DNA from: Roseateles subflavus
GTDB taxonomy: Bacteria > Pseudomonadota > Gammaproteobacteria > Burkholderiales > Burkholderiaceae_C
DNA length: 64,000 bases
NCBI RefSeq assembly: GCF_030285365.1
Contig: NZ_JASVDS010000003.1
Coordinates: 186,001-250,000 of the forward strand
Direction of reading: 5' to 3'
Shown piece after piece: positions 4,016 through 43,293 of the stretch (positions are counted from its first letter, which is position 1; each line of letters opens with the position of its first letter). The notes below the pieces were generated by a model. It was not told the origin of the DNA, searched no databases, and was given only the letters and a program-made list of their open reading frames with translations. The position numbers were made by a program, and so were the translations under genes.

Positions 4016-4113
4016 GCGCGCCCGTCGGCGCGCGTGCAGCCTCGGTGCGGCACGCGCGCCAAACCGGTGAAAGCCCGGCTGCGGGCGTCACGCAGATCGC
4101 CTAAGGTCGCGAG

Positions 4114-4767
4114 ATGCATGAATCTCCCTTTGCCGCCCGCTCGGGCAGTCCCGCGCGGCCCCCGATCCAGTTCTACTTCGACTTCTCGTCGCCCTATGCC
4201 TACATCGCGTCGGAGTGGATCGACGCCGTCGCGGCTCGCCACGGGCGCACGGTGCAATGGCAGGCCATCCTGCTGGGCGTGACCTTCCAGGCCGCCGAGT
4301 TGAAGCCGCCGGTGGCGCACCCGATCAAGCGGGATTACGCGCTGCGCGACTTCGAGCGCTCCGCTCACTTCGCCGGCTTGCCGTACCGCCAGCCCGAGAC
4401 CTTCCCCATCCCCACGCAGAACGCCGCCCGGGTGTTCTGGTGGCTGCATGACACCCAGGGCGCGTCGCAGGCCGTGGGCTTTGCGCGGGCCGGTCTGCGG
4501 GCCTACTTCACGCGTGGCGTGGTGCTCAGCGACCCCGCGCAGCTGCGGGCGCTCCTGGCCGAGCTGGGCCTGGACGCCGATGCGGCCGAGCAGGCCTGGC
4601 AGGACCAGACCTGGAAGCAGCGCCTGCGGGGTGTCAACGAGGCGGCCGTGGCGGCCGGTGTGTTCGGGGCGCCCTTCTTCATGATCGACGGCGAACCCTT
4701 CTGGGGCAACGACCGCCAGCCACAGATCGAGCGCTGGCTGGCGCGCGGGCCCTTCACGCGGCTCTGA
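4114..4767 (+). CDS. 2-hydroxychromene-2-carboxylate isomerase (DsbA/kappa-GST fold)
   Basis: A 217-residue protein of the glutathione-dependent HCCA isomerase family, related to kappa-class glutathione transferases. The N-terminal strand FYFDFSSPYAYIASEWI carries the family SSPYAY signature, whose serine normally contacts the glutathione thiol. The C-terminal GVFGAPFFMIDGEPFWGNDR is the thioredoxin-fold cis-proline region plus the F-WGNDR motif. In naphthalene degraders the enzyme isomerises 2-hydroxychromene-2-carboxylate, but such paralogues are common in Burkholderiales without any naphthalene cluster and none is seen here, so the substrate is open. An AAGG ribosome site precedes the ATG. 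Confidence 0.88.
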   Translation: MHESPFAARSGSPARPPIQFYFDFSSPYAYIASEWIDAVAARHGRTVQWQAILLGVTFQAAELKPPVAHPIKRDYALRDFERSAHFAGLPYRQPETFPIPTQNAARVFWWLHDTQGASQAVGFARAGLRAYFTRGVVLSDPAQLRALLAELGLDADAAEQAWQDQTWKQRLRGVNEAAVAAGVFGAPFFMIDGEPFWGNDRQPQIERWLARGPFTRL

Positions 4768-4802
4768 ACGCCCCCGTCTGAACGCGCACCGTCGGGCCGC
4801 CA

Positions 4803-4831
4803 TGAAAAACGGCAGCCGCGGGGGCTGCCGT
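4803..4831 (-). terminator. Intrinsic terminator of the 4852-6215 gene pair
   Basis: Read on the minus strand, GGCAGCC and GGCTGCC pair around a CCCGC loop and are followed by GTTTTT. There is no T-run on the plus strand, so it serves the leftward genes. Confidence 0.8.
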
Positions 4832-4851
4832 CGAGGGGGGAAGGTCGCGAC

Positions 4852-5637
4852 TCAACCCTTGTTCTGGCGTCGCGCTTCCAGTTCCGCCCACAGGCTGTCG
4901 GCCATGCGCGTGGCCTCGCTGCGCTGGGCGTCGTTCAGCTGCTGGTAGTCCTTGGTCTTCAGCAGCCAGTCGGCGCTGAGCGTGTCCCCCGACCGACGGG
5001 CGACCAGGTTCCAGGCGGCGGCATCCAGCGGCCGCTTCTCCAGCAGATAGGACTCCGAGATGATGGACGCCGCATGCAGGTTGCCGCGCACATAGGCCTG
5101 GCGCAGGGCCTCGCGGGCCGCTTCGCGGTAGGGGTAGCCCGCCTCGAAGTCGGGGTCCTGCGGCTTGCCGTCCAGGGCGAAGAGATAGCGCTCGGCCAGA
5201 TGCGTCAGCGCCTGGCGGTCACCGGCCTCGGCGGCCTGCCGCAGCGTCGCCAGCGTCATCTGGTAGTAGCGCTGGTCGATGTGGTAGCCCAGCTGGCGCA
5301 GGGCCTCGGCCTCGGCCCGCTGCTGCGGGGTCTCCGGCTGGATGTCGGGGGGCGGCATGCCCGGCACGCTGCCGGTCGTGCCGCCCTGGCCCGCGGCCAT
5401 CCAGACCTGCTGACCGGAGGCGTCAGCCCCCGGCGCCTGCGCGGCACTGGCCGGCAGCGGGCGGAACAGGTCCGCCAGACCGGTGTTGAGCCCCGCGTTG
5501 CGCTGGGCCGCCTCGGCTTTGGCGCGGGCCTGGGCCTCCTCGGCACGCGCGGCCTCACGTTCATCCAGCCAGTGCCAGCTGACGAACGTGAGCCCCGTGA
5601 CGACCAGGGCGGCCAGCCCGAGATGCTTGGGGCTCAT
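4852..5637 (-). CDS. Hypothetical membrane-anchored protein with TPR/Sel1-like C-terminal part
   Basis: 261 residues from the ATG at 5637, which has AAGGGG upstream; longer in-frame starts would overlap the preceding gene. An N-terminal hydrophobic segment (about residues 4-19) looks like an uncleaved signal anchor, followed by an Ala/Glu-rich probable coiled coil (residues 25-45) and a low-complexity Pro/Gly/Gln linker. The C-terminal 130 residues are alpha-helical with spaced Ala/Leu pairs (EAGDRQALTHLAERYLFAL) resembling Sel1/TPR repeats. It lies 11 bp downstream of a secreted zinc peptidase gene and is probably co-transcribed with it, so it may be a periplasmic partner. No recognised function. 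Confidence 0.75.
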   Translation of the reverse strand: MSPKHLGLAALVVTGLTFVSWHWLDEREAARAEEAQARAKAEAAQRNAGLNTGLADLFRPLPASAAQAPGADASGQQVWMAAGQGGTTGSVPGMPPPDIQPETPQQRAEAEALRQLGYHIDQRYYQMTLATLRQAAEAGDRQALTHLAERYLFALDGKPQDPDFEAGYPYREAAREALRQAYVRGNLHAASIISESYLLEKRPLDAAAWNLVARRSGDTLSADWLLKTKDYQQLNDAQRSEATRMADSLWAELEARRQNKG

Positions 5638-5648
5638 GGTCCCGCCCC

Positions 5649-6215
5649 TTACAGGCTCAGGCAGCGGCCGAGGCCGTTGGCGTAGCCGTAGCGCGCGTAG
5701 TAGTCGCGCTGCGCCGGAGAGCCGTGCGTGGAGTAGTCCGCGGCGGCGCGGGCCGAACGGACGGCGGACTCGATGAAGGCCGGGTAGCCCAGCGAGGTCT
5801 GCGCGTACTTGGCGAAGGTGCCGGCCACGCAGTCGGCCTGCAGCTCCTGCATCGGCGCCTGCTTGTAGATGCCGCGCGTGAACTGGATGCTGTGGCCCCA
5901 CTCATGGGCGATGATGAACTTGGCCACGTAGTTGCCGTAGCTGTTCTCCTGGCCCTGCAGGAAGCGCACGCCCACGCTGATGGTGTAGGGGCCGCAGGCC
6001 ACGGCATTGCCGGGGACGCCCTCGCCGCAGGCGTTGCGGTCCACGTACACCGTCGGGCGTGCGTAGCCGCCCAGCTGGCCGCGGATCTCGGTGGCCGAGT
6101 TCTGGATGTAGGTGTTGTTGACGGTGGCCGCCTGGGCGCCCAGGGCGCTCAGGGCCAGCGCGGTCACGACGCCCAGGGTGCGGGCGATGGGGGACTTCAG
6201 AAGTTTCGTGTGCAT
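5649..6215 (-). CDS. Secreted neutral zinc metallopeptidase, YpfJ-like (PF04228 type)
   Basis: 188 residues from the ATG at 6215. A clear Sec signal peptide is present (positive MHTKLLK, hydrophobic core, AQA cleavage site near residue 29). The zinc site is HEWGH, and about 20 residues later comes ELQADCVAG, the glutamate-containing third ligand motif typical of the YpfJ/KPN_02809 family. The protein is about 100 residues shorter than E. coli YpfJ and has lost the N-terminal cytoplasmic/TM part, having only a signal peptide. Two cysteine pairs could make disulfides. Likely periplasmic or exported. First gene of a two-gene unit with the anchored protein at 4852. Confidence 0.85.
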   Translation of the reverse strand: MHTKLLKSPIARTLGVVTALALSALGAQAATVNNTYIQNSATEIRGQLGGYARPTVYVDRNACGEGVPGNAVACGPYTISVGVRFLQGQENSYGNYVAKFIIAHEWGHSIQFTRGIYKQAPMQELQADCVAGTFAKYAQTSLGYPAFIESAVRSARAAADYSTHGSPAQRDYYARYGYANGLGRCLSL

Positions 6216-40054: not shown

Positions 40055-40395
40055 GAAGGCACTCCTTGGAGTTGGTATCGGGTGTATGGTTTCGGGGCGG
40101 AGCCGACACCGCGTCGGCTGTGAGGGGACAACGTCGCAGCAGGCGCCTGCGGCGACAGGCGGCGTGTAAAGAACGGTGAAACGCGACCGGTGAAAGGCGA
40201 CCGGTGAAACGCGAACGGAGAGCGCTGTCGGTGAAGCGCGTCGGGACCACCACGGCATGGGGCGCGCTGGAACTCTCCAGGACTGCAAGGGACTGCCGAG
40301 GCGCAGGATGCCGGCATCCGGCGAAAGAAGCATCGGCAGAATGGGTGAAAGACCGCATGAGTGCAGCGGGGGTCGGCGCTCCTACAATGGCCCGC
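40055..40395. other. Intergenic region before tldD
   Basis: 341 bp between divergent genes. It contains the short tandem repeat at 40174-40242 and, at its right end, TACAAT (40383-40388) directly in front of the tldD start. No gene is supported here. Confidence 0.5.
40174..40242. repeat. Imperfect tandem repeat, 14-bp unit
   Basis: CGGTGAAACGCGAC at 40174, CGGTGAAAGGCGAC at 40188 and CGGTGAAACGCGAA at 40202 are consecutive. After a diverged unit, CGGTGAAGCGCGTC follows at 40229. Too short and unspaced to be a CRISPR array. Confidence 0.8.
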
Positions 40396-41859
40396 ATGAT
40401 TTCGCGCGAACCCACCATCGCCCGTCTGGCGACCGCCCGCAGCCAGCTGCTGGAACCCTTCGGCCTCACCGAGGCGACACTCGCCAAGGCCTTGCGGCTG
40501 ATCACCGAGCATCGCGTCGACGACGCCGACCTCTACTTCCAGACCACGCGCGCCGAGGGCTGGAGTCTCGAGGAAGGCATCGTCAAGAGCGGCAGCTTCT
40601 CCATCGACCAGGGCGTGGGGGTGCGCGCGGTGGCCGGCGAGAAGACGGCCTTCGCCTACTCCGACGACATCTCCGAGAACGCCCTGCTCGATGCCGCCCG
40701 CACGGTGCGCAGCATCGCCGCGGCCGGCCAGAGCCGCCGCGTGAAGGTGCCGGGCGAGCCCGTGATTGCCGCCAGCCGTTCGCTGTACGGCGACGCCGAC
40801 CCCATCGCCAGCCTGGACAGTACCGAGAAGGTGGCCCTGCTCGAGCGCGCCGAGCGCATGGCCCGCGCCAAGGACCCGCGCATCGTGCAGGTCATGGCCG
40901 GCCTCGCCGCCGAGCATGACGTGGTGCTGATCGCCCGTGCCGACGGCACCCTGGCGGCGGACGTCCGCCCGCTGGTGCGCCTGTCCATCACCGTGATCGC
41001 CGAGCAGGGGGATCGCCGCGAGGTGGGCACGGGCGGCGGTGGCGGCCGCTTCGGGCTGGCCTACTTCACGGACGAGATGATCGCCTCCTACGCCGACGAC
41101 GCCGTCAAGGCCGCCCTGACCAACCTCGAATCCCGCCCGGCCCCTGCCGGCGAGATGACGGTGGTCCTCGGCCCGGGCTGGCCCGGCGTGCTGCTGCACG
41201 AGGCCGTGGGCCATGGCCTGGAGGGGGACTTCAACCGCAAGGGTTCCAGCGCCTTCGCAGGCCGCATGGGCCAACGGGTGGCGGCCAAGGGGGTCACCGT
41301 GCTGGACGACGGCACGCTGGCCGACCGCCGCGGCTCGCTCAATGTGGACGACGAGGGCCATCCCTCGCAGGCCAATGTGCTGATCGAGGATGGCATCCTC
41401 AAGGGCTACATCCAGGACGCCATGAACGCGCGGCTGATGAAGGTCGCGCCCACCGGCAACGGCCGTCGCGAGAGCTACGCCCACCTGCCCATGCCCCGCA
41501 TGACCAACACCTACATGCTGGGCGGCGACAAGGACCCGGCCGAGATCATCGCCAGCATCGACAAGGGTCTCTACGCCACCAACTTCGGCGGCGGGCAGGT
41601 CGACATCACGAGCGGCAAGTTCGTTTTCTCGGCAAGCGAGGCTTTCTGGGTCGAGAAGGGCCAGATCCAGTACCCGGTGAAGGGCGCCACCATCATCGGC
41701 AACGGTCCGGATGCGCTGACCCGCGTCAGCATGATCGGCAACGACATGGCCCTCGACACGGGCGTGGGCGTCTGCGGCAAGGAAGGCCAGAGCGTGCCGG
41801 TGGGGGTGGGGCAACCGACCCTGCGGATCGACGGCCTGACCGTCGGCGGCACGGCCTGA
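40396..41859 (+). CDS. tldD: Metalloprotease TldD
   Basis: 487 residues from the ATG at 40396 (481 in E. coli); an in-frame ATG at 40387 is possible. TldD pairs with TldE/PmbA to form a peptidase that unfolds and degrades small peptides, as in microcin B17 maturation and CcdA turnover. The zinc motif HEAVGH (268-273, HExxxH) is intact, as is the family C-terminal block NFGGGQVDITSGKFVFSASEA. A TACAAT hexamer ends only 7 bases before this ATG, so the mRNA may be nearly leaderless. pmbA is not in the window. Confidence 0.95.
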   Translation: MISREPTIARLATARSQLLEPFGLTEATLAKALRLITEHRVDDADLYFQTTRAEGWSLEEGIVKSGSFSIDQGVGVRAVAGEKTAFAYSDDISENALLDAARTVRSIAAAGQSRRVKVPGEPVIAASRSLYGDADPIASLDSTEKVALLERAERMARAKDPRIVQVMAGLAAEHDVVLIARADGTLAADVRPLVRLSITVIAEQGDRREVGTGGGGGRFGLAYFTDEMIASYADDAVKAALTNLESRPAPAGEMTVVLGPGWPGVLLHEAVGHGLEGDFNRKGSSAFAGRMGQRVAAKGVTVLDDGTLADRRGSLNVDDEGHPSQANVLIEDGILKGYIQDAMNARLMKVAPTGNGRRESYAHLPMPRMTNTYMLGGDKDPAEIIASIDKGLYATNFGGGQVDITSGKFVFSASEAFWVEKGQIQYPVKGATIIGNGPDALTRVSMIGNDMALDTGVGVCGKEGQSVPVGVGQPTLRIDGLTVGGTA

Positions 41860-41933: not shown

Positions 41934-41963
41934 TTGACGCCCTTGCGCCGCAGCAGGCAGTAT
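41934..41963 (+). promoter_or_regulatory. Candidate promoter of the leader-DAHP synthase unit
   Basis: TTGACG (41934-41939), 18-bp spacer, CAGTAT (41958-41963). The predicted start lies at about 41969-41972, at or just before the leader-peptide ATG, so the leader may be read from a leaderless or nearly leaderless transcript. No Shine-Dalgarno sequence precedes that ATG. Confidence 0.45.
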
Positions 41964-41971
41964 TCGCCACC

Positions 41972-42046
41972 ATGCACTCGCCGAAGTTTTACTTTGCCTT
42001 CTTTTGGTTCTCGCACCGCACCGGCGGAGGAGAGGCGAACGCGTAA
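41972..42046 (+). CDS. Aromatic-amino-acid leader peptide for DAHP synthase attenuation
   Basis: A 24-codon frame ending in TAA. Codons 5-13 read KFYFAFFWF: five Phe, one Tyr and one Trp within nine codons, followed by a Ser/His/Gly/Glu tail without further aromatics. It lies 25 bp upstream of a strong terminator hairpin and 107 bp upstream of the class I DAHP synthase gene. This is the layout of the pheL/trpL type of ribosome-mediated attenuation: shortage of charged aromatic tRNAs would stall the ribosome on codons 6-13 and favour read-through. Composition this extreme, in a genome where Phe and Trp are rare, is unlikely by chance. Translation itself is inferred. Confidence 0.82.
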   Translation: MHSPKFYFAFFWFSHRTGGGEANA

Positions 42047-42104
42047 CCCCAGACACGCAACGAATCTCTGAAGACCGCCGGGCTCCCCCGGCGGTCTTTT
42101 TTTT
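42021..42104 (+). promoter_or_regulatory. Attenuator: antiterminator and terminator of the DAHP synthase leader
   Basis: Terminator: AAGACCGCCGGG (42071-42082) pairs with CCCGGCGGTCTT (42087-42098) over 12 bp with a CTCC loop, then eight T (42097-42104). Competing antiterminator: CCGGCGG (42021-42027) pairs with CCGCCGG (42075-42081) in the terminator's left arm, extended by AGAG (42031-42034) with CTCT (42066-42069). An upstream segment CTCGCCG (41977-41983) can pair with the CGGCG region and release the terminator. These are the 1:2, 2:3 and 3:4 stems of a classical attenuator. Confidence 0.78.
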
Positions 42105-42153
42105 CGCCCTTGCGTCGTCGACCCCCACCTCAGAACCAGCAGAAAGTCTGACC

Positions 42154-43293
42154 ATGAATGCCAAGACCCCCAGCGCGTCCTCGTCTGCCGCTCACCAGGC
42201 CGAGCGCTGGTACTCGCCGCAGGACAAGACCAGCCAGACGGACGACGAGCGCATCCGCGACATCACCCCGCTGCCGCCGCCCGAGCACCTGATCCGCTTC
42301 TTCCCCATCGGCGGCACGCCCATGGAGCGCCTGGTGGTGGGCACGCGCCAGACCATCCGCCGCATCATGCAGCGCAAGGACGACCGTCTGCTGGTCATCA
42401 TCGGTCCGTGCTCGATCCATGATCCGGCCGCCGCCCTCGAGTACGCGCGCCGCCTGGTGGTGGAGCGCCAGAAGTACGCCGACACGCTGGAGGTCGTGAT
42501 GCGCGTCTACTTCGAGAAGCCGCGCACCACGGTGGGCTGGAAGGGCCTGATCAACGACCCCTACCTCGACGAGAGCTACCGCATCGACGAGGGTCTGCGC
42601 ATCGCCCGACAGCTGCTGCTGGAGATCAACCGCCTCGGCCTGCCGGCCGCCGTGGAGTTCCTCGACGTCATCTCGCCGCAGTACATCGGCGACCTCATCT
42701 CCTGGGGCGCCATCGGCGCGCGCACGACGGAAAGCCAGGTGCACCGGGAGCTGGCCTCCGGCCTGTCGGCGCCCATCGGCTTCAAGAACGGCACCGACGG
42801 CAACATCAAGATCGCGACGGACGCCATCCAGGCGGCGGCGCGCCCCCATCACTTCCTGTCCGTCCACAAGAACGGGCAGGTGGCCATCGTCGAGACCAAG
42901 GGCAACAAGGATTGCCACGTGATCCTGCGCGGCGGCAAGGCGCCCAACTACGACGCCGAGAGCGTCGGTGCTGCCTGCAAGGACCTCGCGGCCTCCAAGC
43001 TGGACACCACGCTCATGGTCGACTGCTCGCATGCCAACAGCTCCAAGCAGCACCTGCGCCAGATCGAGGTGGCAAGGGACATCGCGGCCCAGGTGGCGGG
43101 CGGCAGCAACCAGATCTTCGGCGTGATGGTGGAGAGCCACCTGCACGACGGGGCCCAGAAGTTCACCCCGGGCAAGGACGACCCCGCCAAGCTCGAGTAC
43201 GGCAAGAGCATCACCGACGCCTGCCTGGGCTGGGACGACTCGCTCGCGGTGCTCGAGGTGTTGTCCGAAGCCGTCAGGGCGTCCCGGGGCTGA
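42154..43293 (+). CDS. aroG: 3-deoxy-7-phosphoheptulonate (DAHP) synthase, class I
   Basis: 379 residues from the ATG at 42154. The enzyme joins phosphoenolpyruvate and erythrose 4-phosphate in the first step of the shikimate pathway. Family motifs: IIGPCSIHDPAAALEYA (PEP site, metal-binding Cys), MRVYFEKPRTTVGWKG, IGARTTESQVHRELASGLS, GFKNGTDGN, MVDCSHANSSK and the late VMVESHLHDGAQ. It belongs to the AroF/AroG/AroH group with an N-terminal segment (PLPPPEHLIRFFPI) that usually binds the feedback amino acid. Which isozyme type it is cannot be read by eye, so the symbol is tentative. The upstream leader with Phe, Tyr and Trp codons predicts transcription control by all three end products. Confidence 0.95.
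   Translation: MNAKTPSASSSAAHQAERWYSPQDKTSQTDDERIRDITPLPPPEHLIRFFPIGGTPMERLVVGTRQTIRRIMQRKDDRLLVIIGPCSIHDPAAALEYARRLVVERQKYADTLEVVMRVYFEKPRTTVGWKGLINDPYLDESYRIDEGLRIARQLLLEINRLGLPAAVEFLDVISPQYIGDLISWGAIGARTTESQVHRELASGLSAPIGFKNGTDGNIKIATDAIQAAARPHHFLSVHKNGQVAIVETKGNKDCHVILRGGKAPNYDAESVGAACKDLAASKLDTTLMVDCSHANSSKQHLRQIEVARDIAAQVAGGSNQIFGVMVESHLHDGAQKFTPGKDDPAKLEYGKSITDACLGWDDSLAVLEVLSEAVRASRG

What the first reader, a model, noticed from the sequence alone, without database searches (positions are those of the whole stretch)
41934..42153. A complete Phe/Tyr/Trp attenuator in front of DAHP synthase
A 24-codon leader (41972-42046) has KFYFAFFWF at codons 5-13, then a 12-bp terminator with eight T (42071-42104), and a competing antiterminator (42021-42034 with 42066-42081), all 50-180 bp before the class I DAHP synthase gene. 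One leader reading all three aromatic amino acids would give cumulative transcriptional control of the first shikimate step. The textbook E. coli DAHP synthases are controlled by TyrR/TrpR and feedback inhibition instead. I cannot tell whether this leader has been described in Burkholderiales.
Basis: partly seen in the sequence, partly recalled or inferred. Interest (0 to 1): 0.87.

Follow-up and report, generated by a model that had tools for sequence, protein, structure and literature searches.

The report
Aromatic attenuator before DAHP synthase
A short RNA switch in front of the first gene of aromatic amino acid synthesis, shared by many related bacteria, appears to let the gene be read only when ribosomes run short of phenylalanine, tyrosine or tryptophan, in a genome that shows no sign of the two textbook repressors.

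Summary
41972-42046 encodes MHSPKFYFAFFWFSHRTGGGEANA; an intrinsic terminator follows (42070-42104); 42021-42033 pairs with 42065-42081 as a competing antiterminator; a class I DAHP synthase starts at 42154. Not chance: an aromatic-run leader with the same terminator precedes this gene in 56 of 80 loci from named genomes and in 25 of 25 close orthologs among 40 relatives. A covariance model gave 76 strong full-length hits in 300 genomes of the order, each before a DAHP synthase. The RNA arm GGCGG is kept although read in different frames. Modelled on the window, a ribosome on codons 5-13 leaves the antiterminator free (1.00), on codons 15-24 blocks it (0.00-0.01), but at the stop codon frees it partly (0.59). 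I add that most leaders look leaderless (-10 ends 6-8 nt before the start in 50 of 77, no Shine-Dalgarno) and that the genome has no TrpR or TyrR-type match. Phe is universal, Tyr nearly so, Trp in 62 of 77: joint sensing is inferred. Known kind (classical attenuation; Corynebacterium aroR-aroF nearest); not found described for Burkholderiales in ten searches of an incomplete library. No expression data.

The parts
41934..41963 (+). candidate promoter: TTGACG (41934-41939), 18 nt, CAGTAT (41958-41963); predicted start of transcription about 41970-41972
   Evidence: Sequence; the same stretch is kept in the two other species of the genus; over all rows the best -10 (typically TGTGCTACATT) ends 6-8 nt before the leader start in 50 of 77 rows against 4.7 expected for a gap of 5-8. 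Weak in the window itself: no consensus hit, low score.
41972..42046 (+). leader peptide ORF MHSPKFYFAFFWFSHRTGGGEANA, no Shine-Dalgarno, predicted leaderless
41987..42010 (+). control codons 6-13 (Phe Tyr Phe Ala Phe Phe Trp Phe)
   Evidence: 7 aromatics in 9 residues is the maximum of 1301 short-ORF starts in the window
42021..42033 (+). antiterminator 5' arm (CCGGCGG, A, GGAGA)
   Evidence: GGCGG core (variants GGTGG, GGCGA allowed) in reading frames 0, 2 and 1 in 40, 34 and 3 of 77 leaders
42065..42081 (+). antiterminator 3' arm; its CCGCCGG (42075-42081) is also in the 5' arm of the terminator
42070..42104 (+). intrinsic terminator: 13-pair stem, 4-nt loop, eight T
42154..43293 (+). class I DAHP synthase gene (aroFGH family, TIGR00034), the controlled gene

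Best explanation
A ribosome-mediated transcription attenuator controls the DAHP synthase gene. Transcription starts at or within a few bases of the leader AUG, so the leader peptide is translated from a leaderless, Shine-Dalgarno-free 5' end. If Phe-, Tyr- or Trp-tRNA is short, the leading ribosome stalls at codons 6-13; its front edge stops just before 42021, the GGCGG arm stays free and pairs with the 5' half of the terminator, and polymerase reads on into the synthase gene. If the aromatic tRNAs are charged, the ribosome moves on over codons 15-24 and covers the arm while polymerase makes the terminator, and a leader RNA of about 130 nt is released. Shown by comparison: the leader, its codons, both stems, their joint change, the association with this gene; by modelling: the geometry. 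Inferred: the transcription start, actual stalling and termination, the timing of ribosome against polymerase, and that Tyr and Trp as well as Phe are sensed.
For: Conservation: leader plus terminator in 56 of 80 loci and 25 of 25 orthologs. Association: 76 of 76 full-length model hits of 41.8 bits or more in 300 genomes precede a DAHP synthase. RNA-level selection: GGCGG kept in different frames; double-change cells 27 against 6.5 shuffled in the terminator, 20 against 7.5 in the antiterminator; own arms pair better (-23.6) than swapped arms (-20.7 kcal/mol), 0 of 5000 permutations as good. Geometry: the arm begins a median of 12 nt from the first base of the last aromatic codon. Ribosome masks: in the window pairing of the arm with the terminator is 1.00 with the A site on codons 5-13, 0.78 on 14, 0.00-0.01 on 15-24; in 77 of 77 leaders some aromatic codon gives 0.5 or more and some later codon gives under 0.1. 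Leaderless signature. No TrpR or TyrR-type match in the genome.
Against: No expression, 3'-end or translation data. With the ribosome at the stop codon the arm is partly free again: 0.59 in the window, 0.5 or more in 28 of 77, so termination must come from a ribosome in transit, not one waiting at the stop (the zero for the stop is by construction). With a strict mask the very last aromatic codon gives 0.5 or more in 57 of 77 only. The window's own -10 is weak. Covariation rests on few independent changes in related sequences; the counts of further pair types (90 and 83 of 500 shuffles as high) and of antiterminator pairs with double changes (378 of 500) are not unusual. 24 of 80 loci have no such leader. 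No protector 1:2 stem is predicted in the window, so untranslated RNA should read through, unlike the E. coli trp leader as recalled.
Confidence: 0.9

Rival explanations
1. Same attenuator, but in practice a Phe (or Phe/Tyr) sensor; the single Trp codon is incidental and no three-way control exists.
For: 77 of 77 leaders have Phe (mean 4.5), 76 Tyr (1.8), 62 Trp (0.8); some leaders of another family have neither Tyr nor Trp (L159, L172); in C. glutamicum aroR Tyr supply reportedly had no effect (passage of PMC11802643).
Against: Trp12 sits late in the run, where stalling leaves the arm free; all three codon types are kept in the three species of the genus.
Confidence: 0.35
2. The hairpin is merely the terminator of the upstream tldD gene and the ORF is an accident.
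For: tldD ends at 41859, about 210 nt upstream, on the same strand.
Against: The leader, the arm complementary to the terminator and their spacing are conserved over many families; in most rows the -10 motif lies just before the leader; the hairpin lies next to the synthase start in the 76 strong hits.
Confidence: 0.02
3. The nascent peptide itself arrests the ribosome or senses a free amino acid (TnaC-like), rather than codon starvation.
For: The aromatic run is strongly conserved as a class.
Against: Order, number and identity of aromatics vary, and the C-terminal part differs with the frame of the GGCGG core, so no fixed arrest motif is seen.
Confidence: 0.03

Closest known systems
aroR-aroF attenuator of Corynebacterium glutamicum (Neshat et al. 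2014, not held; known here through passages of PMC11802643 and PMC4046766)
   Same: Leader peptide with aromatic codons (Phe-Tyr-Phe) before a DAHP synthase gene; ribosome stalling raises transcription.
   Different: Different phylum; Phe-Tyr-Phe against seven aromatics with Trp; sequence relation not tested.
pheL-pheA Phe leader of enterobacteria (Rfam RF01859)
   Same: Phe-rich leader and intrinsic terminator (recalled).
   Different: Controls pheA, not the first shikimate step; the window scores 22.4 bits against a gathering score of 55.
trpL of Sinorhizobium meliloti
   Same: The attenuated RNA starts with the ATG of the leader ORF (passage of PMC7298713).
   Different: A trp attenuator, controls trpE(G).
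Multivalent leaders thrL and ilvL of E. coli (recalled, no call)
   Same: One leader reads several amino acids of one branched pathway.
   Different: Other amino acids and genes.

Membership tests
Classical ribosome-mediated (leader peptide) transcription attenuators | short ORF rich in codons of the end product(s) upstream of the biosynthetic gene | tested here: met
Classical ribosome-mediated (leader peptide) transcription attenuators | intrinsic terminator between leader ORF and gene | tested here: met
Classical ribosome-mediated (leader peptide) transcription attenuators | mutually exclusive antiterminator freed by stalling at the control codons and blocked when the ribosome passes them | tested here: met
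   By comparison and folding only; at the stop codon the block is partial (0.59 in the window)
Classical ribosome-mediated (leader peptide) transcription attenuators | protector 1:2 stem that favours termination when the leader is not translated | tested here: inconclusive
   Region 1 pairs with the core at 0.5 or more in 31 of 77, not in the three rows of the window's genus; whether all accepted attenuators need it is not settled here
Classical ribosome-mediated (leader peptide) transcription attenuators | read-through responds to aminoacyl-tRNA supply | not testable with these tools
   Needs reporters or RNA 3'-end data
Rfam Phe_leader RF01859 | covariance model score at or above gathering | tested here: not met
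   22.4 bits against 55; no Rfam family at gathering in the window or in 20 related loci
Leaderless mRNA | transcription start at the start codon, no Shine-Dalgarno | tested here: inconclusive
   No SD: mean -1.1 against -5.7 kcal/mol at the synthase start; -10 gap of 6-8 nt in 50 of 77; the window's own -10 is weak; in most Burkholderia- and Oxalobacteraceae-type rows the -10 lies 25-39 nt before the ATG

The most novel reading that the evidence does not exclude
A widespread, leaderless, three-amino-acid attenuator does the work of TyrR and TrpR at the entry of the shikimate pathway in much of the Burkholderiales; because no protector stem is predicted in the window's genus, it is on by default when the leader is not translated, so it reads both aromatic tRNA charging and the ability to start translation on a leaderless mRNA, and it releases a conserved terminated leader RNA that might act in trans.
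Probability: 0.2. Interest if true: 0.72.

Novelty: new member of a known kind. Interest (0 to 1): 0.56.

Why it matters
DAHP synthase commits carbon to all aromatic amino acids. A 2016 comparative study says that TyrR and TrpR are conserved in many groups of gammaproteobacteria but absent in other classes (passage of PMC5343134), and the window's genome has no match to the Trp repressor or TyrR-type HTH models. The other candidate genes that I checked there (two prephenate dehydratase hits, trpE, a pabB-like gene, pheS, two further DAHP synthases) show no aromatic-run ORF in their loci. The element offers a testable answer to how these bacteria tune the first shikimate step, with natural variants that lack Trp or Tyr codons, and a possible handle for engineering aromatic production, for example in Cupriavidus (leader in L063).

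Tried and rejected
Chance ORF plus tldD terminator: rejected by conservation. Rfam membership: none at gathering; sub-threshold hits (ar14, Phe_leader, ncS54 and five others) are far below their gathering scores. Weak model hits: of the eight full-length ones under 41.8 bits that I fetched (L184-L191, 31.7-39.0 bits) only L189 precedes a DAHP synthase; L186 looks like a terminator behind a ketosynthase gene (my recognition of the translation); most shorter hits begin near model position 100 and so are bare terminators. Literature: ten searches (one search listed 20 of 47 papers) showed no description of this element in Burkholderiales; most subscription papers are missing from the library. Vitreschak 2004 and Neshat 2014 are not held; Panina 2001 was seen only as cited; Lopatovskaya 2010 is recalled. 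Passages of Naville and Gautheret 2010: no aroG or aroF in the main text, tables not seen. Sass 2015 on Burkholderia cenocepacia: no occurrence of leader peptide, attenuation or aroG in the main text. The gene tree (150 rows with and 25 without the leader) needs 9 changes of the label, at least 2 forced by starred branches, so one origin with losses or several origins stay open.

Full report
What was checked. The leader ORF 41972-42046 has 24 codons with Phe6 Tyr7 Phe8 Ala9 Phe10 Phe11 Trp12 Phe13. The terminator is 42070-42099 with eight T at 42097-42104. The antiterminator pairs 42021-42027 with 42075-42081 and 42029-42033 with 42065-42069. The gene at 42154-43293 is a class I DAHP synthase (over the TIGR00034 cut-off, below that of the narrower AroG model); upstream is tldD. 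The nearest named relative of the protein is a Roseateles MAG at 86%, so the genome is most likely a Burkholderiales; its genus has three genomes in the held set.

Chance. Of 1301 short-ORF starts of 12-45 codons on both strands of the window, one reaches 7 aromatics in 9 residues and the next best reaches 5. A terminator-like site alone would be unremarkable (1 found, 0.6 expected).

56 of the 80 carry an aromatic leader followed by a CCGCC...GGCGG hairpin and T run; one of these, L010, is degenerate (4 aromatics, no GGCGG core). Among 40 relatives 25 genomes have an ortholog at E 1e-160 or better, the window's own included, and 25 of 25 have the leader. Leaders were picked on aromatic content; all 81 then passed the terminator pattern. 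After removing 3 identical rows and L010, 77 rows were aligned (A1).

RNA constraint. The core (GGCGG, with GGTGG and GGCGA allowed) lies in frame 0 (Gly-Gly) in 40, frame 2 (x-Ala-x or x-Val-x) in 34 and frame 1 in 3 of 77 leaders, so the nucleotides rather than the encoded residues are kept. Terminator: 94.0% of cells paired, 5 of 11 pairs with double changes (1.7 in shuffles), 27 such cells against 6.5; further pair types 9 against 7.6, not unusual. Antiterminator: 87.9% paired, 20 double-change cells against 7.5, but 2 of 7 pairs with double changes against 1.8 in shuffles and 7 further types against 5.6, neither unusual. From I judge that part of the unpaired cells come from rows set one column off. 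Related sequences inflate such counts. Own arms pair at -23.6 kcal/mol on average against -20.7 for swapped arms, 0 of 5000 permutations as good; 58 of 78 rows beat their swapped mean.

Geometry and folding. The 7-nt arm starts at a median of 12 nt after the first base of the last aromatic codon, where the front edge of a ribosome with that codon in its A site would lie (footprint recalled). In 29 of 77 the value is 10 or less, so the last codon itself would cover the core by 1-2 nt (one by 7). One search modelled the stalled ribosome without ever cutting the core (77 of 77 sequestered) and its stop-codon case is zero by construction. One search is the fair test: covered bases (18 before to 12 after the A-site base) are kept unpaired and the rest may pair. 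In the window pairing of the arm with the terminator's 5' half is 1.00 with the A site on codons 5-13, 0.78 on codon 14, 0.00-0.01 on codons 15-24, and 0.59 at the stop. Over 77 leaders the last aromatic codon gives 0.5 or more in 57, the best aromatic codon in 77, and some codon past the run gives under 0.1 in 77; at the stop 28 of 77 give 0.5 or more (mean 0.31). So the switch point falls just after the aromatic run, and termination should depend on a ribosome in transit over the arm while polymerase makes the terminator; a ribosome waiting at the stop would allow some read-through. With no ribosome the mean is 0.44, and 0.995 in the window. Antiterminator energy is at least as strong as the terminator's in 54 of 77; region 1 pairs with the core at 0.5 or more in 31 of 77 and at 0.0 in the three rows of the window's genus, so there an untranslated leader should read through.

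Leaderless leader. In 77 rows with enough upstream DNA (L066 left out) the best -10 hexamer ends 6-8 nt before the leader start codon in 50, against 4.7 expected from shuffles for a gap of 5-8; typical is TGTGCTACATT then 6-7 nt then ATG. There is no Shine-Dalgarno: mean hybrid energy -1.1 (4 of 77 at -4 or better) against -5.7 at the synthase starts (62 of 77) and -2.2 for shuffled leader upstreams (15 of 77). In most Burkholderia- and Oxalobacteraceae-type rows the -10 lies 25-39 nt off, so a short 5' UTR without SD is predicted there. In the window's genus the -10 is weak (for L084 the best hexamer lies elsewhere), so there the claim leans on position and on the conserved TTGACG.

Distribution. 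Model R1 over 300 genomes of the order gave matches in 122; many are bare terminators. The 76 full-length matches of 41.8 bits or more each precede a DAHP synthase: 30 of 30 and 46 of 46. At least four of them (G000, G022, G025, G034) are sequences that went into the model. In two the aromatic run is nearly lost (L178, L181). 233 of the 300 genomes have a TIGR00034 synthase, so the leader marks a part of the order. In one search the Polynucleobacter, Methylotenera, Thauera and Rhodocyclus loci and the named gammaproteobacterial ones (Enterovibrio, Shewanella, Thioalkalivibrio, Ectothiorhodospiraceae) lack it. The stricter filters lose weak matches, so counts are lower bounds.

What it senses. 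Phe in 77 of 77, Tyr in 76, Trp in 62, all three in 61. Some leaders elsewhere have neither Tyr nor Trp (L159, L172). Three-way sensing is thus possible in the window and its genus but not universal.

Genome context. No match to the Trp repressor family or to the TyrR-type HTH in the window's genome, with E. coli ringing in both controls. Two further DAHP synthases (57% and 51%), two prephenate dehydratase hits, trpE, a pabB-like gene and pheS show no short ORF with 5 or more aromatics in 9 in their loci.

Prior knowledge. Attenuation at a DAHP synthase is known in Corynebacterium glutamicum (passages), a leader RNA starting at its ATG in Sinorhizobium trpL (passage). Ten searches showed nothing on Burkholderiales DAHP synthase leaders; key subscription papers are not held. 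I rate it a new member of a known kind with unusual features, the comparative evidence as strong, and the three-amino-acid function as open.

Noticed in passing
L198 about 4111-4931 and L199 about 5248-5977 (genomes G275, G157; also G140, G214, G305, G287): A Tyr/Trp-rich leader (such as ...NAYFYWYRSS... or ...SYYWYRTS...) with a CCGCC...GGCGG terminator precedes no DAHP synthase but, where I read on (G275, G140, G157, G287), a gene of about 200 codons; the two proteins tested (G275, G157) match no Pfam family at a curated cut-off. For G214 and G305 only the leader was read. Perhaps a second aromatic attenuator on an unknown gene.
   Followed up: partly
window 41987-42010 and A1 leaders: Phe codons in the leaders are mostly TTT (224 TTT, 119 TTC in 77 leaders) while the window's DAHP synthase uses 0 TTT and 8 TTC and tldD 0 and 12: rare codons or a need to stay unstructured.
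   Followed up: no
L020, L021, L025 (Polynucleobacter), L023, L029 (Cupriavidus): Close homologs of the window's protein (78-79%) without the leader, nested among leader-bearing rows in the gene tree: apparent losses or transfers.
   Followed up: partly
window 40390-41859; upstream of L013, L020, L059: The end of tldD lies just upstream of the synthase in several distant loci, a conserved neighbourhood.
   Followed up: no
L159, L164, L170, L172, L173 (family f13): Leaders dominated by a Phe run: L159 and L172 have no Tyr or Trp, L173 one Trp, L170 only a final Tyr, L164 one early Tyr and one Trp: natural test cases for which codons matter.
   Followed up: no
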